NCBI RefSeq assembly: GCF_030269645.1
Contig: NZ_BSTR01000041.1
Coordinates: 1-64,000, forward strand
Direction: 5' to 3'
Source: Actinokineospora sp. NBRC 105648
GTDB lineage: Bacteria > Actinomycetota > Actinomycetes > Mycobacteriales > Pseudonocardiaceae
Length of the DNA stretch: 64,000 nucleotides
The notes under the pieces were generated by a model. That model was not told the DNA's origin, did no database searches, and saw nothing but the letters and a program-made list of their open reading frames with translations. Below are positions 5,002 through 39,648 of this stretch, one piece after another. The position numbers and the translations under genes were made by a program. Each line of letters begins with the position of its first letter. Position 1 is the stretch's first letter.

Positions 5002-5141
5002 GCTCGATTGGGTGGACTGCCTTCGTGTGGGGGGAGAGCACCGCTAAACTTGCCGTGTGGTGGGGATGCCCTTCACCCGCCCTTTTTTCACCACCGCGGT
5101 GCTCTAGGGGCCCCACACGAAGGCAGTCCACCCAATCGAGC
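5002..5141 (+). repeat. Dispersed hairpin element, copy 2 (perfect arms)
   Basis: A 140-bp element whose terminal 31-base arms (5002-5032 and 5111-5141) are perfectly complementary; the left arm begins GCTCGATTGGGTGGACTGCC. An inner stem pairs AGAGCACCGC with GCGGTGCTCT. Between them lie CTAAACTTGCC and GGGGATGCCCTTCACC, shared by all six copies. This is the reference copy of arm type 1 (GATTGGG...CTGCC). Confidence 0.9.
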
Positions 5142-5499
5142 ACCACCGTCTCAGCCCGGGTAAACCCAGGGGCCATCCACCCAATCGCCCCAGGCGCCAT
5201 CGGCCCAAGGGCCCTTCACCCAATCGACCGAGGCGCAATCCACGTAATCGACCAAGGGCCGATCCGGCGACACGAGACCGCAACCCACCAGACCGCCGAA
5301 CCCAAGCCCCCCAAGCACACCGCCCCAACCGCGCGAGCTCCCCCACCACCTGCACCACCGGGAACTGCGCGCACACCGCGTACCAGATCACCAGGCTCCA
5401 CTTCGGCCCGCGCACCTCCCGCCCCAGCGCGCTGCGCCGACCCGCGAGGAACGCGCCCGCCGTGCTCAGCAGGCCGACCGTGGTGCCGAAGATGTCCAT
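5104..5499 (-). CDS. Possible small membrane protein gene with repeat-derived 3' end
   Basis: ATG 5499 opens with a plausible coding stretch (MDIFGTTVGLLSTAGAFLAG, then WSLVIWYAVCAQFPVVQVV), two hydrophobic segments separated by basic residues. From about residue 60 it dissolves into Gly/Leu/Arg-rich repeats, and its last codons are read out of the arm of hairpin element copy 2. This looks like a gene whose 3' part was replaced or overrun by repeats, or a chance frame. Repeats of CACCCAATCG type at 5130-5250 resemble the element arm. Confidence 0.3.
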   Translation of the reverse strand: MDIFGTTVGLLSTAGAFLAGRRSALGREVRGPKWSLVIWYAVCAQFPVVQVVGELARLGRCAWGAWVRRSGGLRSRVAGSALGRLRGLRLGRLGEGPLGRWRLGRLGGWPLGLPGLRRWCSIGWTAFVWGP

Positions 5500-5560
5500 G
5501 TGCCCACAGTCGCCCGCTCAGCCGGATCCGTCTGTGCCACCTGGCAGGTCCCCGCCCTGA

Positions 5561-6700
5561 TCACTCGATTGGATCACGGTGATCACCGTCACGCGTCGTC
5601 GTGCCGTCGACCGCGCCGGTCGGGCCCGCGGTGATGGCGACAACCGTGTCTCCACAACGGATCAGGTCACCCGGACGGACCAACACCTCCCCGGTCAGTC
5701 GTCGCCCGTTGTGGAACGTGCCGTTGCGCGACCCCAGGTCCGCCACCACCGCGCGCCCGCCGACGACCGTGATCGCCGCGTGCTCGCGCGACACCGCGCC
5801 GTCGTGGTGCAGTGCCACCTCCGCCGCCGCGTCGCGCCCGATCAACACCCGACCGGCAGCGGGCAACTCCCGCACGCGCGCCCGCCCGGTCCCGTCGACC
5901 CAGGTCAGCATGGGTCTGCCGGACGACGGCGGCCCCGGGGCGACCACCCGCAGCACCGTCGCCGTCCCCGCGTGCGCCAGCACCGCGCGCTCCAGGTCGC
6001 GCAGCGCGGAGCCCGGATCCACCCCGGCCTCGTCCGCGAGCACCCGACGCGCCTGTCGGTAGCGGTCGAGCGCGTCCGACTGCCGCCCCGCCAGGTACAG
6101 CGCCGCCATCAGATGTCCCCACAGCCTTTCCCGCAGCGGGTTGTCCGCGACCAGCCCCTCCAACTCGTGCACCAGCTGTGTCGCCGAACCCGCGCGCAGG
6201 TCGGCCGCCACCCGTGCTTCCACTGCCTCCCAACGCAACTCCGCGTAGAGCGCCCGCGCCGGGTCGAGCGCCGCGTGGTCGGGCAAGTCCGCGCAGAACT
6301 GCCCGCGCCACAACGAAAGCGCTTGCCGGTAACCGAAAGCGGCTCCGGTTGCGTCACCCGCCCGATCGGCGGCGCGGGCCAGGGCCACCGCGTCCTCGGC
6401 TGCGCGGACATCGACCACCGCACCGGTCAACAGATAGCCGGCAGGCGTGTGCCGCAGCAGGGCCCCGTGTTTTCCCAATGCCTGCCGCACCGTGTGAACG
6501 TGAACCTGGACCGTGGTCCGGGTAGCGGGCCGCCCGGTGTCGGAGTAGACCGCCTCGGCCAACCGGTCGCCCGGTACGGGCGTGTCCCCGGACGCCGCGA
6601 GCACGGCCAGCACCGCACGCGGCCGCACGCCCGCGGGCCCGGCCGCGGTGCCGTCGACCACCAACTCGACCGCCCCGAGCAGCCGAACCTCTACCGCCAT
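5561..6700 (-). CDS. SARP-BTAD-FHA transcriptional regulator (EmbR-like)
   Basis: A 379-residue regulator in three parts. An OmpR-type winged-helix SARP domain (about residues 1-95: VEVRLLGAVELVVDG, TTVQVHVHTVRQALG) is followed by a bacterial transcriptional activation domain (about 100-245, with LWGHLMAALYLAGRQSDALDRYRQARRVL). An FHA domain closes the protein (about 275-360: VLIGRDAAAEVAL, VSREHAAITV, LGSRNGTFHNGRRL). FHA binds phosphothreonine, and in Mycobacterium EmbR this allows control by the Ser/Thr kinase PknH. A Ser/Thr kinase lies 2.5 kb away, fitting such a pair. Start chosen at the second ATG; an ATG three codons upstream (6709) is possible. Confidence 0.92.
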   Translation of the reverse strand: MAVEVRLLGAVELVVDGTAAGPAGVRPRAVLAVLAASGDTPVPGDRLAEAVYSDTGRPATRTTVQVHVHTVRQALGKHGALLRHTPAGYLLTGAVVDVRAAEDAVALARAADRAGDATGAAFGYRQALSLWRGQFCADLPDHAALDPARALYAELRWEAVEARVAADLRAGSATQLVHELEGLVADNPLRERLWGHLMAALYLAGRQSDALDRYRQARRVLADEAGVDPGSALRDLERAVLAHAGTATVLRVVAPGPPSSGRPMLTWVDGTGRARVRELPAAGRVLIGRDAAAEVALHHDGAVSREHAAITVVGGRAVVADLGSRNGTFHNGRRLTGEVLVRPGDLIRCGDTVVAITAGPTGAVDGTTTRDGDHRDPIE

Positions 6701-6760
6701 GTGGGGCATGGTCGCAGGGCCTGAAGCGCGCCTGAAGCGCGGTGCGGTCTACTGACCGCC

Positions 6761-7747
6761 ATGACCACCCTGACCGCGCTCGAAGAGGTCGTCGACCGCC
6801 ACGGCCGCGCCACCCTCGCCGACCCGATCGCCCTCACCGGCGCGCTGCGCAGCCTGGCCACCCCACCCCCGGACGCCGACATCGCCGACCTGGCCGGTGT
6901 CTCCGCCTCAGGTGCCGTCGAACGGCTGCGCGCGGCTGTGGAGGCGGGCGCGCGCCCGCAGGAGGCTCGCGCGGAAGCGTTGCGCGGCACCACCGGAGAC
7001 CGTGCGGAGTGGGCTGTCGACCAACTCGGCGCCGCGCTGGGCTACCTCCCCCGGGGTGCGGAACCTGTTGCCAAGCAGTCGAACTCCAACCGCACCCTCT
7101 TGATCGCCGCGCTCGTCGTGGTGTTGCTCGGCGCCGTCGGCACCGTGGTTGTGTTCTCCGCCAACCGCGACACGGCGTCGGGTCCCGTCGAGCCGACCGC
7201 CGCCGCACCGACTACCACGGTCGCGCCGACAACGACGACCACACCGCCGACCAGCAGCACCACGAACACCTCGAGCGCCACGACCCCGCGCGCGGCGTTC
7301 ACCGACCCGGCGCTGCTCAAGGTGGCCGAACCGTACCTGGACCGCGCGGGCGTCAAGTGCGAGGTGGCCGACCCACAGGTGGGCGTGCAGGAGAGCGTCC
7401 TGTGCGACCTGGGTAGCGGGATCGCGGCCAGTTTCCGCAAACTCCTTGACCCGCAACAGCTCGACGCCCTGCGCGGTGTGCTGATCAACGACAACCCGAG
7501 TGCTCTGCCGGGGTCGGTGCGCAGCCTGCGCTGGGAGTACGTGCCCGGCAAGCCCGGGATCCGGACCGGCATCCCGGTGGGCACGCCGCGCAAGGGCGAC
7601 GGTGCGCGGGTGCGCTTCCTCGACCCGGAGCACCAACTCTCCCGGCTGTACTTCGACGAGGACGCCACCGGGGTGGCGGTGCTGATGCAGGCGACCACCG
7701 ACGACCAGCAGGTGCTGCGCGCCTTCTGGGCCGACCCGGACGCGTGA
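6761..7747 (+). CDS. One-pass membrane protein with two-cysteine ectodomain
   Basis: A 328-residue protein. The cytoplasmic N-terminal domain (about residues 1-100, ALEEVVDRHGRATLADPIAL) is shared with the next gene. A single helix at about 108-130 leads into a Thr/Pro-rich linker (about 140-175, PTTTVAPTTTTTPP), a cell-wall-spanning spacer. The ectodomain (about 185-328) contains KCEVADPQVGVQESVLC, two cysteines 14 residues apart. The same spacing occurs twice in the next protein and nearly in the kinase encoded opposite. Function is unknown; an accessory sensor for that kinase is inferred. It diverges from the SARP-FHA gene. Confidence 0.8.
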   Translation: MTTLTALEEVVDRHGRATLADPIALTGALRSLATPPPDADIADLAGVSASGAVERLRAAVEAGARPQEARAEALRGTTGDRAEWAVDQLGAALGYLPRGAEPVAKQSNSNRTLLIAALVVVLLGAVGTVVVFSANRDTASGPVEPTAAAPTTTVAPTTTTTPPTSSTTNTSSATTPRAAFTDPALLKVAEPYLDRAGVKCEVADPQVGVQESVLCDLGSGIAASFRKLLDPQQLDALRGVLINDNPSALPGSVRSLRWEYVPGKPGIRTGIPVGTPRKGDGARVRFLDPEHQLSRLYFDEDATGVAVLMQATTDDQQVLRAFWADPDA

Positions 7748-7754
7748 GGCCACT

Positions 7755-9170
7755 GTGGACGATCGACTGACCGAGGTGGTCCGGCGCTTCGGCAGGCACG
7801 CCCTGACCGACCCGGTCGCCCTCCGCGCGGCGCTGCGGGAGACCGGGAACCGTTTCACCGCAAGAGAAGTGGACGCACTCGCGGCGGTGGCGGGTTCGCC
7901 GGAGCTCGCCGCGCTGTCCACCGAATCGGATATCGCCTCTGTGGTCGCCCACTGGACCTCGGTGCCGGCTATCGAGGTCCAGTGGGCCCTTCGGGCGTTC
8001 CTGGCACCCGCCAAACCCTTGACCCGTCTCCTGACCGACCACGAGCAGACGCAGACCGACGAGTCCACCCGGGCGGTAGCAATCGAACAGGCAACCGAAC
8101 ACGTCCAAGACGCGCCGACGAGCAGGGTCGAACCGGCCGCGCAGTTGGCCGACACCGCACCCCCACTGGGGAACTACGCAGCCGCCCACCGGGTCACCTG
8201 GGAAGACGTCCCTACCCCCACGCGCACGCGGGTGGTGTGGCTCCCGATCGTCATCGTCGCGGTGCTGGCCCTCGTGGGCGGGGGAGTGTTCCTGCTCAAC
8301 CGCGATACCGAACAGCCCCCCGCCCCGCCCCCGGACCGCTACGCCACCGATCAGGTCGCCGCGCGCTACCGCGCGCTGGGCGCCCGCCTGCTCGACGACG
8401 CCCTCCGCTGCGCCCAACTCCCGGCCCGCCCGAGCGAGGTGGAACGGGTCTCCTGCGACATTGGCACCTCCACCCTGACCCTGACCACCTACGACGCGCC
8501 GTCCCGCTTGGCCGAGACCCGCCGGTCCGAGGTCCCCGAGACCGGTGCCGTCCGCTCCGCCCGGGCCGAACAGCAGGGCGCGGGCTTCGCCATGGCCGAG
8601 ATCGAGTCGGGCGCGGCCACGATCCGTTGGGACATCGACAGCCCGCGCCCGGTCAGCGCCAACCTCACCACCGACCGGGGCGGCTTGACCCCGATCCTCA
8701 CCACCTACGACGCCCTCCAGTTCGGCGGCTTGGCACGCCCCGACCTACCCGGCCCCGCGTTCACCTCAGGGGTGCTGTGGGCGTTCGCCGAGAACCAGGT
8801 GATCAACGCCGAAAAGCCGCAGTGCCAACAGGTCCCGGTCGCCGCGGGCACCACCGAGATGGTCAAGTGCCCACTGACCGACGGCGGCATGCTCACCTTC
8901 GCCCTGGCGGCGACCAGGGCAGACCTGATCAAGCAACGCACCGAGAACGCCGCCGGCGGCGGCAAGGTCCCCGGCACAGTCCAAGTCCGCGCCTGGAACC
9001 ACAGCACCGGCGGTGACATCACCGGCCAGTTCATCACCTTCACCACCGCCGACGACAAGTCCCCGACCATCTACTTCGACGACGACCAAACCCTCGCCTA
9101 CGGCTACCTCTTCGGCGCCCCAGGCTCATCCCCGGAGGCCCTCGACGACCGCTGGCAACACGGCCGCTAG
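7755..9170 (+). CDS. One-pass membrane protein with two copies of the two-cysteine ectodomain
   Basis: GTG start at 7755, 7 bases after the preceding stop. A 471-residue paralogue of the preceding protein: the N-terminal LTEVVRRFGRHALTDPVALR aligns with its neighbour. A helix spans about residues 156-176 (VVWLPIVIVAVLALVGGGVF). The outside part has two repeats, each with cysteines 14 residues apart (RCAQLPARPSEVERVSC and QCQQVPVAAGTTEMVKC) followed by a D/G-rich beta segment. It is probably translated with the upstream gene and ends 5 bases before the convergent kinase gene. No enzyme motif is visible; a ligand-binding or kinase-partner role is inferred. Confidence 0.8.
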   Translation: MDDRLTEVVRRFGRHALTDPVALRAALRETGNRFTAREVDALAAVAGSPELAALSTESDIASVVAHWTSVPAIEVQWALRAFLAPAKPLTRLLTDHEQTQTDESTRAVAIEQATEHVQDAPTSRVEPAAQLADTAPPLGNYAAAHRVTWEDVPTPTRTRVVWLPIVIVAVLALVGGGVFLLNRDTEQPPAPPPDRYATDQVAARYRALGARLLDDALRCAQLPARPSEVERVSCDIGTSTLTLTTYDAPSRLAETRRSEVPETGAVRSARAEQQGAGFAMAEIESGAATIRWDIDSPRPVSANLTTDRGGLTPILTTYDALQFGGLARPDLPGPAFTSGVLWAFAENQVINAEKPQCQQVPVAAGTTEMVKCPLTDGGMLTFALAATRADLIKQRTENAAGGGKVPGTVQVRAWNHSTGGDITGQFITFTTADDKSPTIYFDDDQTLAYGYLFGAPGSSPEALDDRWQHGR

Positions 9171-9174
9171 CGGC

Positions 9175-10584: not shown

Positions 10585-10739
10585 CCACACTCCTCACCCC
10601 GACGACCCGCCAACGCCCCAGAGCCCGGGAGCGCGATTCCACGCCACCACGGACCCAGCCCATCGGCCCGGCTGGTCCTCCGCACCGATCGGTCCCCCGT
10701 TCCGACTCGCCCTCCGAGTCTCTCGTTCCCGGTGCCGGA

Positions 10740-12443: not shown

Positions 12444-12530
12444 TGTTCTCGATCTAGTGGGCTCGCTCCTGCGTTGCCTGGGTTGCTCGTTTTCGCGTTG
12501 CCGTCTTCGTTGCCCGGGTTAGAAGCGTGG

Positions 12531-12670
12531 GCTCGATCTAGTGAACTCGCTTCGTGTGGGGCCCCTAGAGCACCGCGGTGGGGAAAGAGCGTGGGGTGAA
12601 GGGCATCCCCACTACCAGGCAAGTTTAGCGGTGCTCTCCCCCCACACGAAGCGAGTCCACTAGATCGAGC
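12531..12670 (-). repeat. Dispersed hairpin element, copy 3
   Basis: A 140-bp minus-strand copy of arm type 2 (GCTCGATCTAGTGGACTCGC when read on the minus strand). Arms lie at 12531-12561 and 12640-12670 with one mismatch, which is a G.U pair in element orientation. The outer flank ATCCGTAGCGGGGCCGCCGG continues to about 12700. It sits between the esterase gene and the SEFIR gene and forms one edge of the SEFIR-CHAT module. The rest of 12444-12802 is non-coding, including a short (GTA)n run near 12760. Confidence 0.9.
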
Positions 12671-12802
12671 ATCCGTAGCGGGGCCGCCGGTACCAGCGGG
12701 GTCGGCCTCACCGCTGCGGAACCAGCGGGGTCGGCCCTTCCGCTGAGGTCTGGTGGTGGTAGTAGTAGTAGTGGGGCGGCCTCTCCGCTGCTATTGTTGT
12801 GG

Positions 12803-14029: not shown

Positions 14030-15241
14030 GTGGTCGCTGCGGAGCGGGACAGCCACGCGCGGGAGGTCGACCGGCGGATGGCGCTGGCCAGGGAGTGGGA
14101 CGACCTGGTCGAGCAGGTCCGCCGGATCGAGGGTTTCCAGGACTTCCTCCGCCCGCCGCCACTGGAGTCGTTGTTGGGTGCGGCGGTCAACGGGCCGGTG
14201 GTCGTGGTCAACGTGAGTCGCTGGCGCTGTGACGCGCTGGTTGTCACCACCGCCGGGGTCGAGGTGGTCGAGCTGCCCCGCCTCACGGCGGCTGAGGTCG
14301 CGGAGCGCACGGCGGCCTTTTTGACCGTCCTGGGGGACCACGCCGTCGCGGATCTCTCATTCGCGGCTGCGCTGCGTGCCCGCGCCGACTGGTTGGCGGA
14401 GCGCGAACGCATTCTGCGAGCGACCGTGGAGTGGCTCTGGGACACTGTCGCCGAACCGGTTTTGGGCGCCTTGCCCAGGGATCACGCCCGGGTGTGGTGG
14501 TGCCCGACCGGTCTGCTCACGCTGTTGCCGCTGCACGGTGCCGGTTACCACTTCGACGGTAGTGGTCGTACTGTCCTGGACCGGGTCGTGTCTTCGTACA
14601 CACCTACCTTGCGGGCACTCGCCGGTCTGACTGAGCCGTCCGAAAAGGATGATAGCCCGCTGCTTTTCGTCAGTGTGCCAGACGTTCTCGACCAGGTTGA
14701 TCTGGCGAGCGATGTCGCGCGCGAGTACGACTTCCTGCGTGAGACCTTCCCGCACGGTCTCACCAGCATCGGTGGCTCCGCCGCTACCGTCGCGGCTGTG
14801 CGGGCTGCCATGGCCGATCATCGTCGGGTCCACCTGAGCTGCCACGGTCACCAGGACCTCAATGACCCATCCGCCGCCGGATTTCTCTTGTCTGACGGGA
14901 CTCTCACCATCGCGCTGCTCAGTGCGGCCCGCCACGGCGGTGACTTCGCCTTCTTGTCGGCGTGTCGGACCGCGACGGGTGGCGTCGACCTCCCCGACGA
15001 GGTGATCACCCTCGCCGCGGCGCTCAGCTATACCGGGTATCGGCACGTCGTGGGCACCCTGTGGTCGGTTGACCCCGCGATCGCGGCGGAGGTCACCACC
15101 GCCGTCTACCCGGAGCTGGTGGTGGATGGGGAGTTCACTCCCGATCGTTCGGCCACGGCCCTGCACAGTGCGGTTCGCGCGTTGCGTGACAGCGGGCGCT
15201 CGATGGACGACTGGCTCCCGTTCACCCACACCGGCCCATGA
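14030..15241 (+). CDS. Stand-alone CHAT-domain protease
   Basis: About 403 residues from GTG 14030 (ATG 14078 is an alternative start, MALAREWDDLVEQVRR). The chain holds the segment that normally follows the TPR array in TPR-CHAT proteins (REWDDLVEQVRRIEGFQDFL, VVVVNVSRWRCDALVV). The caspase-like CHAT core follows, with the catalytic-type motifs HLSCHGH (His272) and FLSACRTA (Cys312). The tail GYRHVVGTLWSVDPA is also typical. CHAT peptidases cleave partner proteins when their sensor is triggered, as in Craspase and gasdermin systems. No sensor is fused; the TPR arrays are encoded by the next two genes, the first overlapping by ATGA. Confidence 0.88.
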   Translation: MVAAERDSHAREVDRRMALAREWDDLVEQVRRIEGFQDFLRPPPLESLLGAAVNGPVVVVNVSRWRCDALVVTTAGVEVVELPRLTAAEVAERTAAFLTVLGDHAVADLSFAAALRARADWLAERERILRATVEWLWDTVAEPVLGALPRDHARVWWCPTGLLTLLPLHGAGYHFDGSGRTVLDRVVSSYTPTLRALAGLTEPSEKDDSPLLFVSVPDVLDQVDLASDVAREYDFLRETFPHGLTSIGGSAATVAAVRAAMADHRRVHLSCHGHQDLNDPSAAGFLLSDGTLTIALLSAARHGGDFAFLSACRTATGGVDLPDEVITLAAALSYTGYRHVVGTLWSVDPAIAAEVTTAVYPELVVDGEFTPDRSATALHSAVRALRDSGRSMDDWLPFTHTGP

Positions 15242-18054
15242 GCGCGGACCGCGCGCGGTGGCTGCGCCTGGTGGAGTCGCGGGTCGAGCGGTTCGCCGAG
15301 GACCCGGCGGTCGTGCTCGGCCCCGAAGCGTTGCGGGAAGCGGAGAATCTGTTCGCGGCTGCCGAACCTGATGTCGAGGCTGTCGTCGCAGTCGCCTGGT
15401 TGCACTGGCTGCGTGTAGATTTGCTACCGGCGGACGAGGCCGAGGTCGAACTGGAGCGGGCGATCTCCCTGTTCACCGAGGTTTGGGACCTTGCCCCGGA
15501 CAGTGTGCCTGTCGAACTGCGGGACGTGCTCGGTGAGGATGCGGGGGTGGCCGAGTTCCTGCTCTACCTGGCCGATGGTGATGCCGATGTCCTCGATGTC
15601 GCCGTGGACAGGCTCCGGGAGTCCGCTGACGCCGATCCGACGATCGCTGCCAGGAGTGGGAACCTCGCGGCTGCCCTGTGCGAGCGCTTTGTGCTTGCGG
15701 GGCGGGAAGTAGACCTCGATGAGGCAATCGCGGTGGCTGCCCGTGCGGTGGCTGCCGCCGAGCCGGGATCGCGCTCGCGGGGCGGTGTGCTGGCCACCTC
15801 AGCCGCTGTGCTGCGCGCCCGCTATGAGAGCCGGGGCGAGGTCGCCGATCTCGACACCGCCGTCGCGCAGTACCGTGCGGCGGTCGGCGACCCGGACGAC
15901 CCGGCGGCGACGAACGCCATCGTGCTGACGAACTTGGTCACGGCCTTGGTCACCCGATTCGAGGCGCACGGCGAGTTGGCCGACCTCGACGAGGCGATCA
16001 GCACCGCGCGCGCCGTGACCGATCCGATTGGCGACACGTGGTCGGCGCTCGGACTCGCCCTGCGCACCCGGTACGACAGAACGGGTTCGGTAGCGGATCT
16101 GGACGAGGCGCTCGTGGCCGCGCGGAAGGCGGTGCGGGAGACCGAATCCGAGGGCGACCACGCGGGCGCGTTGTCTTGCCTGTCGGGCGTCCACGGTGCC
16201 CGTTACCGACTCCACCAAGACCTCGCCGAGCTCGACGCCGCCATCGAGACCGCGCGGGCCGCCGTGGCCGTGGGAAAGGGGGCGCATCGGGAGGTGTACC
16301 GGTCGAACCTGGGCGACCTGCTGCACGACCGCTTCACCGCGACCGCGGACGAGGAAGACCTGGCCGCCGCGATAAACATTCTGCGCCAAGCACTCCAGGG
16401 CACACCAGACCTGAGCCCGCACCGACCCAGCTGCGTCGCGAACCTCGGGCAGGCCATGCTTTCCCGCTACGAGCGCCAAGGCACCGCCGCCGATGTCGAT
16501 GAGGCGGTAGTCCTCGCCAGGCAGGGCGTTGAGCTGGCTCGGCTGGACAACATGGACGGGCCGCGGATCAGGGCCCTGCTCGCCCAGGCTGTTCAGGCTC
16601 GGTTCGAGGACCGCGGTGCGGTCGCAGACCTGGACGAGGCTGTCGAGTTGGCCCGTTCGGCACTCGGGTCCGTTGCGCGTGAGCACCCCGAATACCCGAC
16701 ATACCTGGGAATCCTGGCCACCGCGCAGTGGGCCCGCTTCCCGTGGACCGCTGATCCGGCCGACCTCGAGGAGGCGGTCGAGGTGGCTCGCGCGGCCGTG
16801 GAACTGGCCCGTACGAACGAGGACCGGGCCGCTCACGAGTCGAACCTCTCGGTGGTGCTCGGTTCCCGCCACGAACTCACGGGTCGACCCGCCGATCTGG
16901 AAGAGGCGGTGGCCGCGGCTCGTCGTGCGGTCGGTGTCACCGCGCCGGGTAGCCCCGCACTGGCCCGCAGACTTGCCAACCTCAGCGCGGTTCTACGTTC
17001 CCGCTTTGAAGACCTCGGTTCGATCGAGGACATCGATGAGGCCGTAGTGTGCGCGCGGGCCGCAGTTGCGGTAGCGCCCGTGAAGAGCCCGGAACGCGCG
17101 GCGTGGTGGTCGACCCTGACCGGCGTCCTGCAGAGCCGCTACGGACAATCAGCCCAGCTCGCCGACCTGGACGAGGCTGTCGACGCCGCGCGGGAGGCCG
17201 CGCGCACGACGCCGCCGACTGCCCCCGCCTTCGCCGGCAGACTCAGCAACCTCGGCAACGCACTACTCCGTCGGTCCGGCGAACCAGCAGACTTGTTGCC
17301 ATTCTTGGCTTCGCCCGGTGTGGAGTCCACTGTGTCCGATGATCTCATCGAGGCTGTTCAGGCCATGCGCGACGCGGTCGCGGCCGTGCTGCCCGGCGCG
17401 CACGATCACGCCGCGCTGTGTGCGAACCTGGCGATGACCCTGCTCAGCCTGTACTACGCCACCGGCGAGAGCGCGGTCCTCGAGGAGTCGGTCGAGTGGG
17501 CCCGGCGGGCGGTCGAGCGGACCACGGCCGACCAACCCGATCTGGCCCTGCACCAGGCCGACCTCGGTGTCGCGTTGGCCGCGCTCGCTGCGGTGACCGG
17601 TGCCGAGGACGTGCTCACCGAGTCTCTGGCGCTCTTGAGGCAAGCCGCGGGCGTGCGCACCGCGCCCCCGTTGATCAGGATGGTCGCGGCGCGCAGGCGA
17701 GGTGAGGTGGCGGGCGGGGCGGGCAGGGTGCCGGAGGCGGTGGCGGGCTTCACCGAGGCGGTTCGCCTGCTGGGCGTGACGTCCTGGCACGGCTTGGACC
17801 GCCGGTCCCGGGAACGGCACTTGGCCGCTGCCCTAGGCCTGGCCACGGATGCGGGCGCCTGGGCTATACACAGTGGACAGTCAAGTCTATCCGTCGAATT
17901 GCTGGAGTCGGGGCGGTCGGTGCTATGGAGCCAACTCCTTGATGCCGCGCCGGACCTGACGGCGGTGACCACGGCCGATCCAGCGCTCGGCGCGCGGCTA
18001 CTTGAGGTTGGCCGCCTGCTGAACAGGGAGTTGGGCCATCGTGACCGACCTTGA
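15238..18054 (+). CDS. Large TPR-like repeat protein (sensor arm of split TPR-CHAT system)
   Basis: A 938-residue soluble protein made almost wholly of about 15 helical repeats of roughly 40-46 residues, with consensus ADLDEAV..AR.AV followed by a L..LSNLG.AL..RFE helix. The first about 130 residues are a distinct leader. The last about 120 residues (LDRRSRERHLAAALGLATDA, VELLESGRSVLWSQLLD) match the linker that precedes CHAT in single-chain TPR-CHAT proteins. The chain then stops, so the protease is supplied in trans by the upstream gene. It overlaps the CHAT gene by 4 bases and the next gene by 14 bases. Confidence 0.85.
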   Translation: MSADRARWLRLVESRVERFAEDPAVVLGPEALREAENLFAAAEPDVEAVVAVAWLHWLRVDLLPADEAEVELERAISLFTEVWDLAPDSVPVELRDVLGEDAGVAEFLLYLADGDADVLDVAVDRLRESADADPTIAARSGNLAAALCERFVLAGREVDLDEAIAVAARAVAAAEPGSRSRGGVLATSAAVLRARYESRGEVADLDTAVAQYRAAVGDPDDPAATNAIVLTNLVTALVTRFEAHGELADLDEAISTARAVTDPIGDTWSALGLALRTRYDRTGSVADLDEALVAARKAVRETESEGDHAGALSCLSGVHGARYRLHQDLAELDAAIETARAAVAVGKGAHREVYRSNLGDLLHDRFTATADEEDLAAAINILRQALQGTPDLSPHRPSCVANLGQAMLSRYERQGTAADVDEAVVLARQGVELARLDNMDGPRIRALLAQAVQARFEDRGAVADLDEAVELARSALGSVAREHPEYPTYLGILATAQWARFPWTADPADLEEAVEVARAAVELARTNEDRAAHESNLSVVLGSRHELTGRPADLEEAVAAARRAVGVTAPGSPALARRLANLSAVLRSRFEDLGSIEDIDEAVVCARAAVAVAPVKSPERAAWWSTLTGVLQSRYGQSAQLADLDEAVDAAREAARTTPPTAPAFAGRLSNLGNALLRRSGEPADLLPFLASPGVESTVSDDLIEAVQAMRDAVAAVLPGAHDHAALCANLAMTLLSLYYATGESAVLEESVEWARRAVERTTADQPDLALHQADLGVALAALAAVTGAEDVLTESLALLRQAAGVRTAPPLIRMVAARRRGEVAGGAGRVPEAVAGFTEAVRLLGVTSWHGLDRRSRERHLAAALGLATDAGAWAIHSGQSSLSVELLESGRSVLWSQLLDAAPDLTAVTTADPALGARLLEVGRLLNRELGHRDRP

Positions 18055-19900
18055 CGCGCTGCGGCAACGGGTTGCGGACTACTTCGCGGGTGACGCCGAC
18101 GCCGTGCTGGGCGACGCCGCGGTCGCCGAAGCGGGTGCGTTGTTGGCGACGGTGCTGGACCAGGACACAGAGGAAGAGGTCTACGTCGACGTGTTCCAGG
18201 CCGTCGCGCTGCTGCACTGGTGCCGCTTCCAGGCCACGGAGCAGGCGGACGACTTGGCCGTGGCCGTGCGGCTGTTCTCCTTCCTCGCGGAGAAGGACGT
18301 CGACTTGACCCCGCTTGAGATCCGCGGCCACCTGGACATCGGCTCTGGCCCCGGTGTGCTCCCGGCGAGTGGCACCCAGTGGGCGGTGCTCGCGTTGCAG
18401 GGCGGCGACCCGGCGGCGATCGACGAGGCCGTCGAGATCCTCCGGGCCGCGTTGGCTGACCCGGCTGACCCGTATCGCGACAGGTACCTGGTGAACCTCA
18501 GCGCGGCCCTGCTGTCCCGCGCGCGGCGCTCGTCCGCACTGGCCGACCTGGAGGCGGCGATCGCGGCCCTGACCGATGTGATTGCTCTCGGTGGCCCAGA
18601 GCTGCTGTCGCGCATGGTCGACCTCGCTCTGCTGTTGCGCGACAGATCTATCCACACAGGACAGAAGAGTCATGCGGACCAGGCGGTCGATGCCTGCCGG
18701 GCGGCGGTGGCGGCGGCTGGCGGGCCCGATGCACTGTCCACCCTGAGCGGAACCCTGGTATCCCGTTTCGAACTGACCGGAGATCCGGAGGACCTGCACG
18801 AGGCGATCGCCGCAGGTAGGGCGGCGATCGCCGCCGATTCGGGCGATCGTCGCGTGCGTTTGCTGGCCAACCTGGGCGGCGCCCTCCGACTCCGCTTCGA
18901 CCGCTCCGGCGGCCTGCGCGACCTGGACGAGGCGATCGAAGCGTGCCGGTCGGCGGTGGCGCTGGCGGATTCCGACGACCCGTACCTGGCTGTCTACCTG
19001 TCCAATGTGGCCACTGCGTTGGCGGTTCGCGCGCCACACGCGGATCACCCGACCGACCTCGACGATGCCGTGGTCGCCGCCCGGGCCGCGGTGGAGGTGA
19101 CACCGGTCGGCCATCCAGAACGAGCCAAGTACCTATCCACTTTGGGCAACACGGCGTCCTTGCGGTTCGAGCGAACAGGCGACCCGGCGGATATCAAGAC
19201 GGCTGTCGACGCCGGGCGGGCCGCACTGGAGCTGCTGTCCGCGGACCACCCGGCGCGGCCCGCAGTGCTGTCCAACCTGCAGAACGCGTTGGCGGTCCGG
19301 TACGAGCTGGCGGGCGACCCCGCGGACCTCGACGCCGCCATCGCGGCGGTGTCGGACGCGGTCGACTTGGTCCCGCCGGGCCACCCGGGCCGAGCCGCCT
19401 ACCAGTCGAACCTGGGGTTGGGACTGTGGACGCGCGGGGCCGAGGACGACAGGGCCCGAGCCATCGCCGCCTGGCGATCAGCCGCCGAGGCCCAGGCCGC
19501 CCCGGTGGCAGTCCGCCTGAAGGCGGCGGGCCGCTGGGCAGAGGCGGCCACCAGCGAGGGATCGGTGTCCGCTGTGGACGGGTACGCCACCGCCATCTCC
19601 CTGCTCCCCCTGCTGACCTGGCGCGGAGTGACCCGTCGCGACCAGGAGCGAGTGCTCGCCGGCATCACTACGTTGACCGGCGATGCCACAGCCGTGGCGA
19701 CCGAGAAAGGCGACCTGGGCCGAGCGGTGGAACTGATGGAACAGAGTCGGGCGGTTCTCTGGTCGCAGTTCCTCGACCTGCACACTGACACCACCCACCT
19801 GGAAGAAACGGCCCCCACCCTGGCCCGCCGCCTAGTGGAGATCCGGGAGCAACTCAACACGCCTTGGCCGGAGCCGAGCCCTGGACGGCCGATCGACTGA
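18041..19900 (+). CDS. Second TPR-like repeat protein of the split TPR-CHAT operon
   Basis: GTG 18041 lies inside the end of the previous gene. This 619-residue paralogue has the same order: N-terminal leader (DALRQRVADYFAGDADAVLG), about eight TPR-like units (GDPADLDAAIAAVSDAVDL and similar), and the pre-CHAT linker near the C-terminus (VELMEQSRAVLWSQFLDLHT, then RRLVEIREQLN). It too ends where a CHAT domain would begin. Two sensors of different length sharing one protease would let the system recognise more than one trigger; this is inference. It is the last gene of the operon. Confidence 0.85.
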   Translation: MTDLDALRQRVADYFAGDADAVLGDAAVAEAGALLATVLDQDTEEEVYVDVFQAVALLHWCRFQATEQADDLAVAVRLFSFLAEKDVDLTPLEIRGHLDIGSGPGVLPASGTQWAVLALQGGDPAAIDEAVEILRAALADPADPYRDRYLVNLSAALLSRARRSSALADLEAAIAALTDVIALGGPELLSRMVDLALLLRDRSIHTGQKSHADQAVDACRAAVAAAGGPDALSTLSGTLVSRFELTGDPEDLHEAIAAGRAAIAADSGDRRVRLLANLGGALRLRFDRSGGLRDLDEAIEACRSAVALADSDDPYLAVYLSNVATALAVRAPHADHPTDLDDAVVAARAAVEVTPVGHPERAKYLSTLGNTASLRFERTGDPADIKTAVDAGRAALELLSADHPARPAVLSNLQNALAVRYELAGDPADLDAAIAAVSDAVDLVPPGHPGRAAYQSNLGLGLWTRGAEDDRARAIAAWRSAAEAQAAPVAVRLKAAGRWAEAATSEGSVSAVDGYATAISLLPLLTWRGVTRRDQERVLAGITTLTGDATAVATEKGDLGRAVELMEQSRAVLWSQFLDLHTDTTHLEETAPTLARRLVEIREQLNTPWPEPSPGRPID

Positions 19901-20123: not shown

Positions 20124-20263
20124 GCTCGATCTAGTGGACTCGCTTCGTGTGGGGGGAGAGCACCGCTAAACTTGCCGTGTGGTGGGGATGCCCTTCACCC
20201 CACGCTTTTTCCCCACCGCGGTGCTCTAGGGGCCCCGCACGAAGTGAGTTCACTAGATCGAGC
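20124..20263 (+). repeat. Dispersed hairpin element, copy 4
   Basis: A 140-bp plus-strand copy with type 2 arms at 20124-20154 and 20233-20263. Three arm mismatches are all G.U pairs in this orientation. The outer flank (about 20098-20123) matches the flank of copy 3 in inverse orientation, so copies 3 and 4 bracket the SEFIR-CHAT-TPR module with their flanks facing inward. Confidence 0.9.
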
Positions 20264-32292: not shown

Positions 32293-32300
32293 GGCCCGCG

Positions 32301-33308
32301 ATGGACGACCCGATGCGCGCCACCGAACAGCGCGAGATGCGCGCCACGGTAGCGAAGTTCCTCGACGACAACGCCGACATCCGCACGGCGATGGCGCTGG
32401 ATCCGGGGTACGACAAGGACTTGTGGCGCCGCACGGTCGACGAGCTTGGCCTGGCGGCACTGCTGGTCCCTGAACGCTGCGGCGGCTTGGGCATGGACTT
32501 CGGTGACGCCGCGGTGGTGATAGAGGAGTTCGGGCGCAGGCTGGTGCCTTCGCCCTCGCTGACCACCCTGGTCGCCTGCGCGGTCCTCGACCAGTGCGGC
32601 GCCGACGACCTCCTGGCCAGGATCGGCGAGGACGGGCTGTCGGTCTCCATCGCCCTGGCTGACCGCGAACCGACCACGGTCGACCAGGGCAGGATCACCG
32701 GCTCCAAGCAGCACGTCATCCACGGCGCGGACGTGGACGTCCTGCTGGTGGTGGCGGGTGATGATCTGTACACAGTAGACACAACGTCGGTCGTTCGACG
32801 GCGTCGAGTGGCGCTCGACCACACCCGGGCGCTCGCCGAGATCGACCTGACCGACGTGCCTGCCACGCTGATCGGCCCGGCGGCCGTGGTGACCGACCTG
32901 CTGCACGTCGCCCTGGCGGCGGAATCGGCCGCGGCGGCGGAGACCTGCCTGGCCGACACGGTCGAGTACCTGAAGGTCCGGCACCAGTTCGGCAAGCCGA
33001 TCGGCTCCTTCCAAGCTCTAAAACACCGTTGCGCCGACCTCGCTGTGCTCGTGGCGGGCGCCCGAGCCACGGCCTGGTACGCGGTGCGGGCCGTGGGCAC
33101 CGATGAACTTGCTTCAGTCGCGCCCTTGGCCAAAGTGGTGTGCACGGATGCCCTGATGGCGGTGGCAGCGGAGTCGGTGCAGCTGCACGGCGGCATCGGC
33201 TTCACCTTCGAGCACGACGCACACCTCTACCTCAAGCGCGCCAAGGCGAACCAACACCTCTTCGGTACAAACTCCTTGCTGCGCGGGAAGATTGGCGAAA
33301 GCCTGTGA
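32301..33308 (+). CDS. Acyl-CoA dehydrogenase, second subunit of a pair
   Basis: A 335-residue shorter FadE-type protein: EQREMRATVAKFLDDNADIR, LGLAALLVPERCGGLGMDFG, YLKVRHQFGKPIGSFQALKH and LHGGIGFTFEHDAHLYLKRA. Short members of this kind pair with a full-length FadE to form a heterotetramer with one active site per dimer, as described for FadE26-27 and FadE28-29. It starts 9 bases after the first subunit and overlaps the SnoaL-like gene by GTGA. Its middle domain is reduced compared with the first subunit. Confidence 0.89.
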   Translation: MDDPMRATEQREMRATVAKFLDDNADIRTAMALDPGYDKDLWRRTVDELGLAALLVPERCGGLGMDFGDAAVVIEEFGRRLVPSPSLTTLVACAVLDQCGADDLLARIGEDGLSVSIALADREPTTVDQGRITGSKQHVIHGADVDVLLVVAGDDLYTVDTTSVVRRRRVALDHTRALAEIDLTDVPATLIGPAAVVTDLLHVALAAESAAAAETCLADTVEYLKVRHQFGKPIGSFQALKHRCADLAVLVAGARATAWYAVRAVGTDELASVAPLAKVVCTDALMAVAAESVQLHGGIGFTFEHDAHLYLKRAKANQHLFGTNSLLRGKIGESL

Positions 33309-33718: not shown

Positions 33719-33763
33719 CCGGCCAACCCGCCACCGATCGACGTGCCCGACCCCCGCTCACGG

Positions 33764-36185: not shown

Positions 36186-36231
36186 GCGGTCATCCTCCAG
36201 GACGTGCGGACAATGGCGACCCGACTAGACT

Positions 36232-36245
36232 AGCAAGCGCTTGGT
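36232..36245. promoter_or_regulatory. KstR2-type operator (perfect)
   Basis: AGCAAGCGCTTGGT matches AnCAAGnnCTTGnT fully. Single box in the 110-bp divergent gap between the FadA6-like and FadD3-like genes. Confidence 0.87.
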
Positions 36246-36295
36246 TGGCTCGCTAGGATCGGTCCGGCGGACAGTCAGCACAGCGGGAGGCGCAC

Positions 36296-37900
36296 GTGTC
36301 GGACAGCGGAGGCTTCAGCACGATCCCGGCGTGCCTGCGGGCGGCGGCGGTCGACTCGGCCGGCGTGGAGGCCGTGGTGGACGGCGACCTCCGGCTGACC
36401 TTCGCCGACCTCGACGCCGCCGTCACCCGGTTCGCCCGGGCCGCGATCGCCCGCGGGTTGCTGCCGGGCGACCGGGCTGCGGTGTGGGCGCCCAACTCCG
36501 GCCGCTGGGTGGTCGCCGCGCTGGGCATCCTGGCCGCGGGCGGGGTGCTGGTTCCGGTCAACACCCGGTTCAAGGGCGCCGAGGCCCGCTACGCGCTGGC
36601 CAAGGTCCGAGCGAGCGTGCTGCTGCTCGACGACGGCTTTCTCGGCAACGACTACCTGGCCATGGTCCGCGACAGCAGCCCCGAGCCGCCGACCGACCGG
36701 CTGCCGGTGCCCGGCCTGCCCGACCTGCACACCGTGGTGACCCTCGACGACGTCGACGACCCGGCCGCGATCGGGTACGAGCACTTCCTCGCCGGCGCCG
36801 AGACGGTCCCCGAGTCCACTGTGGATGAGCGGATCGCAGCCCTGCGGCCCGACGACGTCGCCGACATCCTGTTCACCTCCGGCACCACCGGCTACCCCAA
36901 GGGCGCCATGGTGACCCACCTGGCCGACCTGCGCGTGGACGAGGCCTGGTCGGACGGCGTCGGGCTGCGCGCGGGCGACCGGTACCTGCTGATCAACCCG
37001 TTCTTCCACAGCTTCGGCTACCGCGCGGGCCTGCTGGCCTGCCTGGTCAAGCGGGCGACCATCGTCCCGATGCGGGTCTTCGACGTCGTGGGCGCGCTGG
37101 AGCTGGTCGAGCGCGAACGGATCACGGTCTTCCCTGGCGCGCCAACGGTTTTCACCTCGATCCTGGCCCATCCGAAGCTGGCTGACCACGACCTGGGCTC
37201 GGTGCGGCTCGCGGTCACCGGCGCCACCGTCGTGCCCGTGCCACTGCTGGTGAGCATGCGCGAGCGGCTGGGCTTCCGGGACGTGGTGACCGCCTACGGG
37301 CTCACCGAGACCTGCGGCACCGCCACCGTGTGCCCGCCGGACACCGACGCCGAACGGCTGTCCACCAGTTGCGGCAAGGCGATCCCGGGCACCGAGGTGG
37401 CCATTGTGGATGGTCTGGGAAACTCGTTGCCGCCAGGCGAACACGGTGAGGTCGTCGTGCGCGGCTACAACGTGATGCTCGGCTACTTCGAGGACCCGGT
37501 CGCCACCGCCGCCGCCATCGACCCGGACGGCTGGCTGCACACCGGCGACGTCGGTTGGCTCGACACCGAGGGCTACCTGCGGATCACCGACCGCCTCAAG
37601 GACATGTACGTCGTCGGCGGCTTCAACGTCTACCCCGCCGAGGTCGAGCGCATGCTCAGCGACCACCCGGCCGTCGCCGAGGTCGCCGTGGTCGGCATGC
37701 CCGATGACCGCCTCGGCGAAGTCGGCCACGCTTACGTCGTAGCCGAGCCGGGCGCGGTGCCCACCGAGGCCGAACTCATCGAGCACTGCCGGGCGACCAT
37801 GGCGAACTACAAGGTCCCGCGCCGGGTCACCTTCGTGACCGAACTGCCCCGCACACCCAGCGGCAAGATCCAGAAGTTCCGGCTCGGCGCCCCAGCCTGA
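36296..37900 (+). CDS. FadD3-like acyl-CoA synthetase
   Basis: A 534-residue AMP-forming ligase from GTG 36296 (GGGAGG 5 bases upstream). ANL motifs: LFTSGTTGYPKGAMVTH (A3), TAYGLTETCG (A5), GWLHTGDVGWLDTEGYL (A7), RLKDMYVVGGFNVYPAE (A8) and the catalytic lysine near PRTPSGKIQKFRL. The segment INPFFHSFGYRAGLLACL resembles FadD3, the HIP-CoA ligase controlled by KstR2. It would activate the carboxylate that enters this pathway and possibly make the CoA ester sensed by the TetR regulator. It forms a unit with the thiolase downstream. Confidence 0.91.
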   Translation: MSDSGGFSTIPACLRAAAVDSAGVEAVVDGDLRLTFADLDAAVTRFARAAIARGLLPGDRAAVWAPNSGRWVVAALGILAAGGVLVPVNTRFKGAEARYALAKVRASVLLLDDGFLGNDYLAMVRDSSPEPPTDRLPVPGLPDLHTVVTLDDVDDPAAIGYEHFLAGAETVPESTVDERIAALRPDDVADILFTSGTTGYPKGAMVTHLADLRVDEAWSDGVGLRAGDRYLLINPFFHSFGYRAGLLACLVKRATIVPMRVFDVVGALELVERERITVFPGAPTVFTSILAHPKLADHDLGSVRLAVTGATVVPVPLLVSMRERLGFRDVVTAYGLTETCGTATVCPPDTDAERLSTSCGKAIPGTEVAIVDGLGNSLPPGEHGEVVVRGYNVMLGYFEDPVATAAAIDPDGWLHTGDVGWLDTEGYLRITDRLKDMYVVGGFNVYPAEVERMLSDHPAVAEVAVVGMPDDRLGEVGHAYVVAEPGAVPTEAELIEHCRATMANYKVPRRVTFVTELPRTPSGKIQKFRLGAPA

Positions 37901-37922
37901 GTCCCCCGCGAAGGAGTACCCC

Positions 37923-39131
37923 ATGCCCGAAGCCGTGATCGCCGCCGCCACCCGCTCACCGATCGGCCGCGCCTTCAAGGGTTCCCTCACCGACATGCGC
38001 GCCGACGACCTCGCCATCGCCATGGTCCGCGCCGCACTGGCCCGGGTGCCGGAGTTGGATCCGCACACCTTGGACGACCTGGCCCTGGGCACCGCCCAGC
38101 CCGCAGGCGAACAGGGCTACGGCCTGGCCCGCGTGGTCGCCGTGGGCCTCGGACTCGACGACGTGCCGGGCACGACCGTGCAGCGCTACTGCGCGTCCAG
38201 CCTCCAAGCCACCCGCATGGCCCTGCACGCCATCCGCGCGGGCGAGGGCCACGCCTTCATCGCCGCAGGAGCGGAGGCGGTGTCCCGCTTCAACCGGGGC
38301 AAGGCCGACGGCATGCCAGACACCAAGAACCCCATGTTCGCCGACGCTTCCGCGCGAACGGCACTCAACAGTCCCGAGTGGACCGACCCGCGCGCCGACG
38401 GCAACGTTCCCGACGTCTACCTCGCCATGGGCCAGACAGCCGAGAACGTGGCCACACTGCGCGGCATCAGCAGGCGAGCACAGGACGAATTCGCGGCCCT
38501 GAGCCAACAACGCGCCCAAGCCGCGATCGCGTCCGGCTTCTTCACCACGGACATCACCCCCGTCACCCTGCCCGACGGAACCGTGGTCAGCACCGACGAC
38601 GGACCACGCCCCGGCATCACGGTGGAGTCCTTGTCCGGACTCAAGCCGGTGTTCCGTGCTGACGGAACAGTCACAGCGGGAAACTGCTGCGGCCTCAACG
38701 ACGGCGCAGCCGCACTGGTGGTGCTCTCGGACGTGCGCGCCGCAGAACTGGGCGTGACACCACTGGCCAGGATCGTGGCCAGCGGCGTATCGGCGCTGTC
38801 CCCCGAGATCATGGGCCTGGGCCCGGTAGAGGCAACCCGACGAGCCCTGGCCAACGCCGGAATGTCGGTCTCGGACCTGGACTTGGTCGAGATCAACGAG
38901 GCCTTTGCCGCGCAGGTGCTACCGAGTGTGGACGACCTGAAGCTGGATCTGGACCTGGTGAACGTGCACGGCGGCGCCATCGCGCTGGGCCACCCCTACG
39001 GCCAAACCGGCGCCAGGATGACAACCACGCTGATCAACGGCCTACGAGCCAAAGATGGCCAATTCGGCCTGGTGACCATGTGCACCGCAGGCGGCCAAGG
39101 AATGGCCCTAATCCTAGAACGACTGTCCTGA
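37923..39131 (+). CDS. Thiolase (acetyl-CoA acyltransferase)
   Basis: A 402-residue thiolase; AAGGAG precedes ATG 37923. Cys in TVQRYCASSLQATRMAL (about residue 92), NCCGLNDGAAALVVLSDVRA, DLVEINEAFAAQV, GGAIALGHPYGQTGARM and LVTMCTAGGQGMALILERL. It differs from the FadA6-like enzyme in the final CTAGGQG motif, which is typical of general acetyl-CoA acyltransferases. It would release acetyl- or propionyl-CoA after chain or ring cleavage. It lies 22 bases after the ligase gene and ends the unit. Confidence 0.9.
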   Translation: MPEAVIAAATRSPIGRAFKGSLTDMRADDLAIAMVRAALARVPELDPHTLDDLALGTAQPAGEQGYGLARVVAVGLGLDDVPGTTVQRYCASSLQATRMALHAIRAGEGHAFIAAGAEAVSRFNRGKADGMPDTKNPMFADASARTALNSPEWTDPRADGNVPDVYLAMGQTAENVATLRGISRRAQDEFAALSQQRAQAAIASGFFTTDITPVTLPDGTVVSTDDGPRPGITVESLSGLKPVFRADGTVTAGNCCGLNDGAAALVVLSDVRAAELGVTPLARIVASGVSALSPEIMGLGPVEATRRALANAGMSVSDLDLVEINEAFAAQVLPSVDDLKLDLDLVNVHGGAIALGHPYGQTGARMTTTLINGLRAKDGQFGLVTMCTAGGQGMALILERLS

Positions 39132-39268
39132 CCAACAACCCCCACTACCTCCTGCCCCCCTGCCACCTCCTGTCGCCTATTGTTATACATCTGTTCTCTT
39201 GTCTTTATCTCTTGTCCTCAAATCTCTAAATGCCGAGCCCGCTGGTACGCAACGCCCGCTACGGACAT

Positions 39269-39408
39269 GCTCGATTGGGTGGACTGCCTTCGTGTGGGGG
39301 GAGAGCACCGCTAAACTTGCCGTGTGGTGGGGATGCCCTTCACCCGCCCTTTTTTCACCACCGCGGTGCTCTAGGGGCCCCGCGCGAAGGCAGTCCAGCC
39401 AATCGAGC
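39269..39408 (+). repeat. Dispersed hairpin element, copy 5
   Basis: A 140-bp plus-strand copy with type 1 arms at 39269-39299 and 39378-39408. Of three arm mismatches, two are G.U and one is G.G. The outer flank (39241-39268) keeps GCTGGTACG and CGCTACGG. It lies in the long gene-free gap 39132-39877, whose left part (39132-39240) is pyrimidine-rich and contains no recognisable gene. Confidence 0.9.
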
Positions 39409-39510
39409 CCCGCTCTTACTCGGGCAGCTCGTGGGGTGTGCCGCACACCGACCTATGGTCGACCGTCTTCGGCGGCTCGTCGCTGGGGCTGCCCGAGGAA
39501 AAGATAGGGG

Positions 39511-39648
39511 GCTCGATCTAGTGAACTCGCTTCGTGCGGGGCCCCTAGAGCACCGCGGTGGAGAGAAAAGGGCAGGTAAGGGCATCCCCACCCACGGCAA
39601 GTTTAGCGGCACTCTCCCCCCACACGAAGCAAGTCCACTAGATCGAGC
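39511..39648 (-). repeat. Dispersed hairpin element, copy 6
   Basis: A 138-bp minus-strand copy with type 2 arms (39511-39541 and 39618-39648). Three arm mismatches, all G.U in element orientation. It lies 102 bases from copy 5 in the opposite orientation. The outer flank ATCCGTAACGGGACTTGCGT extends to about 39676. Confidence 0.9.

What the first reader, a model, noticed from the sequence alone, without database searches (positions are those of the whole stretch)
5002..39648. Family of 140-bp hairpin elements with covarying arms and G.U-biased mismatches
Six copies (121-226 decayed; 5002, 12531, 20124, 39269, 39511) share 31-base complementary arms and a conserved core. The arms come in two types that differ at five positions (GATTGGG...CTGCC versus GATCTAG...CTCGC), with both arms changed together. 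Of ten arm mismatches in copies 3-6, nine are G.U pairs when read in the element's own orientation (copies 4 and 5 plus, 3 and 6 minus), and one is G.G. DNA-level selection would not favour one strand. This points to an RNA hairpin under selection, or a mobile element moving through a folded RNA or single strand.
Basis: seen in the sequence. Interest (0 to 1): 0.85.

Follow-up and report, generated by a model that had tools for sequence, protein, structure and literature searches.

The report
Hairpin repeats kin to DUF222-HNH elements
The 140-base hairpins are a real, very abundant repeat family in Actinokineospora bacteria, kept as one-strand folded structures by paired mutations, and they resemble hairpins found at both ends of a little-studied nuclease-type gene in related bacteria, which suggests a new kind of mobile element.

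Summary
In detail: five intact copies and one decayed copy, with ten arm mismatches, nine G.U and one G.G. The genome has 310 matches to the core. Of 39 predicted pairs, 24 show double-sided compensatory changes. Across 169 distinct Actinokineospora sequences G.U outnumbers A.C 290:8; 158 of 169 fold better on the element's own strand. Copies lie between genes, 83 of 139 between convergent ones. Many form head-to-head pairs; 32 of 32 examined join two arm types. No Y1/RAYT transposase was found. A covariance model hits 29 of 297 Pseudonocardiaceae genomes. In four, 49 of 49 hits lie 231-748 bp from a DUF222 gene and point away from it. Best reading: non-autonomous hairpin elements related to the ends of DUF222-HNH elements. 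Against it: 14 of 16 Actinokineospora genomes lack DUF222, elsewhere hairpins also occur without DUF222, and I found no insertion scar. A nested terminator-like motif in this genome's copies, not in A. diospyrosa's by the same rule, makes a terminator role the main rival.

The parts
5002..5141 (+). single hairpin element, arm type 1 (GATTGGG), perfect 31-bp arms, in a convergent intergenic region
12531..12670 (-). single hairpin element, arm type 2 (GATCTAG), one G.U in the arms; 12530-12671 is 100% identical to G000:C4:219393-219534
20124..20263 (+). single hairpin element, arm type 2, three G.U in the arms, between two co-directional called genes
39269..39408 (+). left hairpin (type 1) of a head-to-head pair between convergent genes; nested terminator-like stem at 39326-39344 followed by a T-run
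39409..39510 (.). spacer of the pair, with a GGGCAGC...GCTGCCC inverted repeat (read by eye)
39511..39648 (-). right hairpin (type 2) of the pair; nested terminator-like stem on the - strand at 39595-39572 followed by a T-run
39232..39268 (+). left flank module GCCGAGCCCGCTGGTACGCAA..., recognisable by eye in nearly all of the 32 pairs printed, and inverted with respect to the right flank
39650..39697 (-). right flank module; in the 32 pairs its reverse complement typically ends ...CCCCGCTGGTACGCAAGTCCCGTTACGGA
99..226 (-). decayed copy; the end of the element's 3' side does not match the family

Best explanation
The hairpins are non-autonomous mobile elements of a Pseudonocardiaceae family of repeats. 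SHOWN: each copy is a conserved two-stem fold (31-bp outer stem, 3' internal loop with AGGGG, inner stem, conserved CTAAACTTG-like stretch), maintained by compensatory change and by strand-specific G.U pairs; copy number is high and the arm sequences differ between species; in related genera hairpins found by the same model stand at the ends of units of about 1.3-2.4 kb with a DUF222 gene between them, pointing outward. INFERRED: the hairpins are the ends that a DUF222-HNH nuclease recognises as a folded single strand and nicks at or beside; solo or paired hairpins are short derivatives that spread in trans, as REPINs do with RAYTs. In Actinokineospora the gene has been lost, or the mover is another enzyme; copies persist where insertions are tolerated, mostly between convergent genes, where a nested terminator-like stem may now serve the host.
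For: 310 core matches in the genome. 24 of 39 pairs with double-sided changes. G.U 290 vs A.C 8. 158 of 169 sequences fold better on their own strand. Model hits at E<=1e-5 in 15 of 16 Actinokineospora genomes and in 14 further genomes of 8 other genera. In G201, G022, G217 and G232, 49 of 49 hits lie 231-748 bp from a DUF222 gene, all 49 pointing outward (chance of proximity 1-3% per hit). Among these four genomes and G237 I count by eye 19 two-ended loci; I fetched 14 of them, and 14 of 14 encode a DUF222 protein or part of one between the hairpins by tblastn (in L304 only a 159-residue stretch). Pfam on 3 of these proteins: DUF222 in 3 of 3; HNH above cut-off in 1 of 3, below it in 2; His, Asn and His of the HNH motif invariant in 6 of 6 aligned proteins. 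Two different outer arms per unit occur in this genome's pairs (32 of 32) and in the six G201 DUF222 units inspected. At 12 of 15 mapped sites of other species no hairpin was found here. Identical copies on different contigs.
Against: DUF222 is absent from 14 of 16 Actinokineospora genomes, and the three genes present have no hairpin within the fetched flanks, so the mover there is unproven. In the four genomes only 35 of 117 DUF222 genes carry model hits. In an order-wide sample 0 of 28 DUF222 loci had hairpins on both sides (27 from other families, one from the same family). G102 has 65 hairpins and no DUF222; G069 and G200 have 8 and 7 hairpins and 2 DUF222 genes each, none adjacent; only 10 of 35 hits in G237 and 1 of the 9 listed (of 10) in G045 are beside a DUF222 gene (my reading). 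Pairs here point inward (-> <-), the opposite of the DUF222 units (<- gene ->). Arm types are the same at both ends in the G022, G232 and G237 units. Strand asymmetry is weak in DUF222-flanking hairpins (28 of 41, a few of them not of this family). No target-site duplication seen in the copies compared. In Actinokineospora the hairpin sits inside longer conserved flanks, so the mobile unit is not delimited. E-values of the model are rough.
Confidence: 0.5

Rival explanations
1. Host-used RNA structure: each hairpin is a transcription terminator or 3'-end stabiliser, and a head-to-head pair is a two-way terminator between convergent genes. Copies are kept and homogenised by selection and gene conversion rather than by transposition.
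For: 139 of 139 classified elements lie between genes, 83 convergent and 8 divergent. In tiles of the genome 10 of 19 element-bearing gaps are convergent and 0 divergent, against 119 and 161 of 634 gaps; without the window and the C26 tile, which were taken because they hold elements, 7 of 14 are convergent and 0 divergent. Terminator-like stem plus T-run in the own strand of 77 of 103 sequences of this genome, 0 of 103 complements, 12% of shuffles. Co-directional singles are in the sense of the upstream gene in 22 of 32 (p 0.05). Three of 15 mapped sites are shared with another species, one of them a pair in both; G008 and G013 share one site.
Against: By the same rule A. diospyrosa passes in 0 of 50, below its shuffles (23%); 44 of 50 pass a looser rule that has no shuffle control; 3 of 16 others pass, shuffles 17%. 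Median distance from the gene on the 5' side is 260-661 bp for convergent and sense singles, far for a terminator. 12 of 15 mapped sites hold no hairpin here. It does not explain hairpins at both ends of DUF222 genes.
Confidence: 0.27
2. Ordinary DNA fold-back MITE moved by an unidentified DDE-type transposase; the G.U bias is a by-product of strand-biased mutation and inheritance.
For: Long near-perfect terminal inverted repeats and many near-identical copies. Mismatch types seen only once are less skewed (15 G.U, 6 A.C, p 0.08).
Against: G.U arises in both ways (G with T and T with G) and recurs at stem positions 14, 25 and 27 in several species, which one mutation bias does not predict; inner-stem covariation with a fixed internal loop; no convincing recurrent gene beside the hairpins in the Actinokineospora loci examined; no duplication seen.
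Confidence: 0.12
3. REP/REPIN elements served by a RAYT (Y1) transposase.
For: Same layout on paper: palindromes, inverted pairs, singlets, a gene flanked by palindromes in relatives.
Against: No PF01797 match in the genome, control positive in 5 of 14 genomes; hairpins of about 140 bp instead of 20-40 bp; the flanked gene in relatives is DUF222.
Confidence: 0.03

Closest known systems
REP / REPIN with RAYT (TnpA-REP), e.g. PMC3116915, PMC3733652, PMC8266576 (seen as search listing and start of abstract only; the rest recalled)
   Same: Short palindromes in many extragenic copies; inverted pairs; some copies flank a gene for a DNA-processing enzyme
   Different: 140-bp two-stem hairpins instead of 20-40 bp; the linked gene in relatives is DUF222-HNH, not a Y1 transposase; strong one-strand G.U bias; the 32 pairs examined here are all of two arm types
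REP13E12 / 13E12 repeat family (DUF222-HNH genes in mycobacteria)
   Same: Multi-copy DUF222-HNH genes of unproven function: PMC13061034 (six passages read) says REP13E12 regions lack a defined biological function; PMC10589994 (one passage read) lists REP13E12/HNH endonuclease/DUF222 among clusters from a mobile-element screen, as explained by repetitive elements; one plasmid relative is annotated '13E12 repeat family protein'
   Different: No flanking hairpins are mentioned in the passages that I read; 0 of 28 DUF222 loci in an order-wide sample had hairpins on both sides. I did not examine the mycobacterial repeats by name
HEARO / IsrB-IscB (OMEGA) systems (recalled)
   Same: An HNH nuclease gene beside a structured RNA; the HNH part of one DUF222 protein is closest in the PDB to IscB (E 0.012)
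   Different: The NCBIfam IscB model scores 21 bits against a cut-off of 175 in 1 of 3 proteins; two inverted hairpins flank the gene; no guide was looked for. A lead only
MITEs / fold-back elements (recalled)
   Same: Non-autonomous, palindromic, high copy
   Different: No parent transposase and no target duplication found; pairing covaries as a two-stem structure with a fixed internal loop

Membership tests
REP/REPIN-RAYT | Y1 (HUH) transposase of the RAYT group in the genome | tested here: not met
   PF01797: 0 matches in the genome at E<=0.001, control positive in 5 of 14 genomes
REP/REPIN-RAYT | inverted palindrome pairs and singlets in extragenic positions | tested here: met
   32 distinct pairs examined; 139 of 139 classified elements between genes
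REP/REPIN-RAYT | short 20-40 bp palindrome with a GTAG/CGTC tag | tested here: not met
   elements are about 140 bp with TGCTCGAT...ATCGAGC(A) ends; size and tag taken from the listing of PMC3733652
DUF222-HNH hairpin-ended element (named here) | hairpins at both ends, pointing outward, with a DUF222 gene between | tested here: not met
   not in Actinokineospora: 3 DUF222 genes in 16 genomes, none with hairpins; met at 14 of 14 fetched two-ended loci of G201, G022, G217, G232, G237
DUF222-HNH hairpin-ended element (named here) | hairpin found by the model built from Actinokineospora | tested here: met
   49 hits in four genomes with R1, E about 2e-11 to 1e-7 per genome, rough calibration
Intrinsic terminator | GC-rich stem followed by a T-run on the transcribed strand | tested here: inconclusive
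   77 of 103 in this genome, 0 of 50 in A. diospyrosa and 3 of 16 in others by the same rule; transcription not tested
Known Rfam RNA family | score above a family's gathering threshold | tested here: not met
   0 matches in the window; at E<=10 two microRNA models far below threshold around the pair
MITE | target-site duplication and a parent transposase with the same ends | tested here: inconclusive
   no duplication seen at the assumed ends of DUF222 copies (by eye); no convincing recurrent neighbour gene in Actinokineospora loci

The most novel reading that the evidence does not exclude
DUF222-HNH proteins, common and unexplained in actinobacteria, include the nuclease of a new class of mobile element that recognises its two ends as folded single-strand hairpins of fixed polarity (possibly as RNA bound by the protein), in some lineages with a different arm type at each end. 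Actinokineospora carries hundreds of gene-less descendants, some domesticated as paired terminators between convergent genes.
Probability: 0.35. Interest if true: 0.88.

Novelty: new variant of a known kind. Interest (0 to 1): 0.7.

Why it matters
It gives an abundant, unexplained protein family (DUF222-HNH) a concrete candidate substrate, and an undescribed repeat family a plausible parent. If the link is right, hairpin palindromes moved by an HNH nuclease would be a second, independently evolved solution to what REPINs and RAYTs do. The Actinokineospora copies also offer a natural test set for RNA-level selection on repeats, with 100 or more model hits in each of ten of the 16 genomes.

Tried and rejected
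RAYT/Y1 transposase: none in the genome. Rfam: nothing. Phages and plasmids by distant blastn with the hairpin at 5001-5142: no match; viral contigs by one exact pattern: 0. Plasmids by protein with one DUF222-HNH protein: 7 records, all below 60% identity; not looked at for hairpins. Recurrent neighbour genes in Actinokineospora loci: none convincing (the largest cluster, ABC-transporter-like genes in 11 loci, and clusters from overlapping loci were set aside). DUF222 as the partner in this genome: one gene, no hairpins. Generality of DUF222 hairpins: 0 of 28 order-wide loci had both sides, 10 had one. Two-sided synteny: 2 and 3 usable cases, none with a hairpin here; the one-sided version gave 15 sites, 3 shared, against 6% for all gene ends, p 0.06. 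Target-site duplication: not seen at the assumed boundaries. Literature (open-licence PMC only): searches returned one paper each, off the topic by their listing and not opened; searches returned none; one search listed 13 REP13E12 papers, of which I read passages in two; one search listed three REP/RAYT papers, not opened.

Dropped or capped: one spurious loose-pattern hit inside a gene at window 33060-33201; 50 of 189 distinct elements could not be classified by neighbours (46 at a locus edge, 4 far from genes); 1 of 229 pooled sequences could not be trimmed; A1 holds 30 of the 34 representatives. Gene calls come from a small GC-position caller of my own, not from an annotation.
Full report
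OBSERVATION. The covariance model R1 finds five intact elements in the window (5002-5141 +, 12531-12670 -, 20124-20263 +, 39269-39408 +, 39511-39648 -) and one decayed copy (99-226 -). Two arm types (GATTGGG, GATCTAG) share one core.

COPY NUMBER. A 28-base core pattern with up to 3 mismatches occurs 310 times in the window's own genome (143 forward, 167 reverse; reversed control 0). Other subfamilies with the same layout but other stems occur too. The copy at 12531 is identical over 142 bases to one on another contig.

STRUCTURE. Thirty diverse sequences (30 of the 34 representatives) were aligned. RNAalifold predicts 39 pairs, 24 with at least one double-sided compensatory change. The fold: an outer stem of 31 pairs, a 3' internal loop containing AGGGG, an inner stem of about ten pairs, a conserved CTAAACTTG-like stretch and an apical stem. 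Six representatives fold with z-scores of -8.2 to -11.9.

STRAND POLARITY. In 169 distinct Actinokineospora sequences the outer stem holds 290 G.U, 8 A.C and 58 other mismatched cells; as distinct types, 41 G.U against 7 A.C (p 6e-7); among types seen at least three times, 18 G.U, 0 A.C and 2 other. Types seen once are less skewed (15 G.U, 6 A.C; p 0.08), so part of the excess is inherited. Wobble recurs at positions 14, 25 and 27 in several species. The element's own strand folds better than its complement in 96 of 103 (this genome), 48 of 50 (A. diospyrosa) and 14 of 16 (others), by 9-14 kcal/mol on average. RNA and folded single-stranded DNA are both compatible with this.

PLACEMENT. Of 189 distinct elements, 139 could be placed between two called genes; all 139 are intergenic, 83 convergent, 48 co-directional and 8 divergent. 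That sample came from similarity searches. In tiles of contigs C1-C3, one tile of C26 and the window (1.26 Mb), element-bearing gaps are 10 convergent, 9 co-directional and 0 divergent of 19, against 119 convergent and 161 divergent of 634 gaps (Fisher p 0.0008). The window and the C26 tile were taken because they hold elements; C1-C3 alone give 7 convergent and 7 co-directional of 14. Co-directional singles are sense to the upstream gene in 22 of 32 (p 0.05).

PAIRS. In this genome many elements are head-to-head pairs with spacers of mostly 88-99 bp. All 32 examined are of two different arm types (28 type 1 with type 2, 4 type 2 with another), with conserved, asymmetric flanks. A. auranticolor also has head-to-head pairs of two arm types. 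The A. diospyrosa copies that could be classified are singles (31 of 31), most in a conserved surrounding of their own.

RELATIVES. I did not run the model outside the family.

DUF222 LINK. In four genomes of two genera (G201, G217, G232; G022), 49 of 49 hits lie 231-748 bp from a DUF222 gene and all 49 point away from it; the chance of such proximity is 1-3% per hit. Thirty-five of the 117 DUF222 genes of these genomes carry hits. Including G237 I count 19 two-ended loci; 14 were fetched and all 14 encode a DUF222 protein, or in L304 a 159-residue stretch of one, between the hairpins by tblastn. Pfam was run on three of these proteins: DUF222 in 3 of 3; HNH above cut-off in 1 and below it in 2. 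The HNH histidines and asparagine are invariant in six aligned proteins, three of them hairpin-flanked. The six G201 units inspected carry two different outer arms, as this genome's pairs do; those of G022, G232 and G237 carry the same arm type at both ends.

AGAINST THE LINK. This genus almost lacks DUF222: 3 genes in 16 genomes, none with hairpins. G102 has 65 hairpins and no DUF222. By my reading, no hit of G069 or G200 lies beside a DUF222 gene, and only 10 of 35 in G237 and 1 of the 9 listed in G045 do. An order-wide sample shows 0 of 28 DUF222 loci with hairpins on both sides. Polarity is weak in DUF222-flanking hairpins (28 of 41). The orientation differs: outward around DUF222, inward in the pairs here.

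MOBILITY. Of 15 hairpin sites of other species whose flank could be mapped on one side to this genome's tiles, 3 have a hairpin here and in 12 none was found within 1.5 kb; 6% is expected for any gene end. So turnover looks high, with perhaps a few old shared sites, the clearest being a pair shared with A. auranticolor beside 7 kb of collinear sequence; G008 and G013 share another site. No convincing recurrent neighbour gene, no target duplication seen, no Y1 transposase.

TERMINATOR READING. A terminator-like apical stem plus T-run lies in the own strand of both hairpins of the window's pair, in 77 of 103 sequences of this genome and in none of their complements, 12% in shuffles. A. diospyrosa fails the same rule (0 of 50, shuffles 23%), and 3 of 16 others pass (shuffles 17%). 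Placement between convergent genes fits two-way termination, but it fits tolerated insertion as well.

JUDGEMENT. The hairpin is a genuine one-strand folded element, and the same model finds the hairpins at both ends of DUF222 units in related genera. I think a mobile origin with a DUF222-HNH nuclease most likely, at about even odds, with a host terminator role as a rival or a later addition. The literature searches listed in Tried and rejected did not find this repeat family or DUF222 with flanking hairpins; the library holds only open-licence PMC papers.

Noticed in passing
L058:1299-1445, L108:17511-17654, L129:18044-18184, L137:14979-15122: Further hairpin subfamilies in the same genome with the same layout but different stems (for example GAGAAAAGAGGCGC...GCGCCTCTTTTCT).
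   Followed up: partly
flanks of elements, e.g. L049 upstream of 1501 and L300 left flank: Degenerate tandem units around CCGCTGGTACC / GGTTCCAGCGG lie beside the hairpins in this genome and, on the other side of the hairpin, in G022.
   Followed up: no
L117:9903-10071 and L141:7268-7436: An unrelated 168-bp inverted-repeat element with CTAG ends, two similar copies in the tiles of this genome.
   Followed up: no
G000 contigs C7, C9, C15, C16, C18, C19, C25, C29, C30, C31, C39: A copy lies within about the first 280 bases of each of these contigs, so the repeats probably broke the assembly and copies may be undercounted.
   Followed up: no
window 15238-19900: Large open frames with internal repeats, several of them spaced by about 135 bases; perhaps a TPR-type protein (guess, not tested).
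   Followed up: no
L299:833-2029 protein, residues 334-373: The HNH part of this DUF222 protein is closest in the PDB to IscB (E 0.012).
   Followed up: partly
hairpins of G102, G045, G237 (L307, L308, L303): A T.C mismatch recurs at the same place of the outer stem (TTTTAC / GTCAAA) in three genera (read by eye).
   Followed up: no
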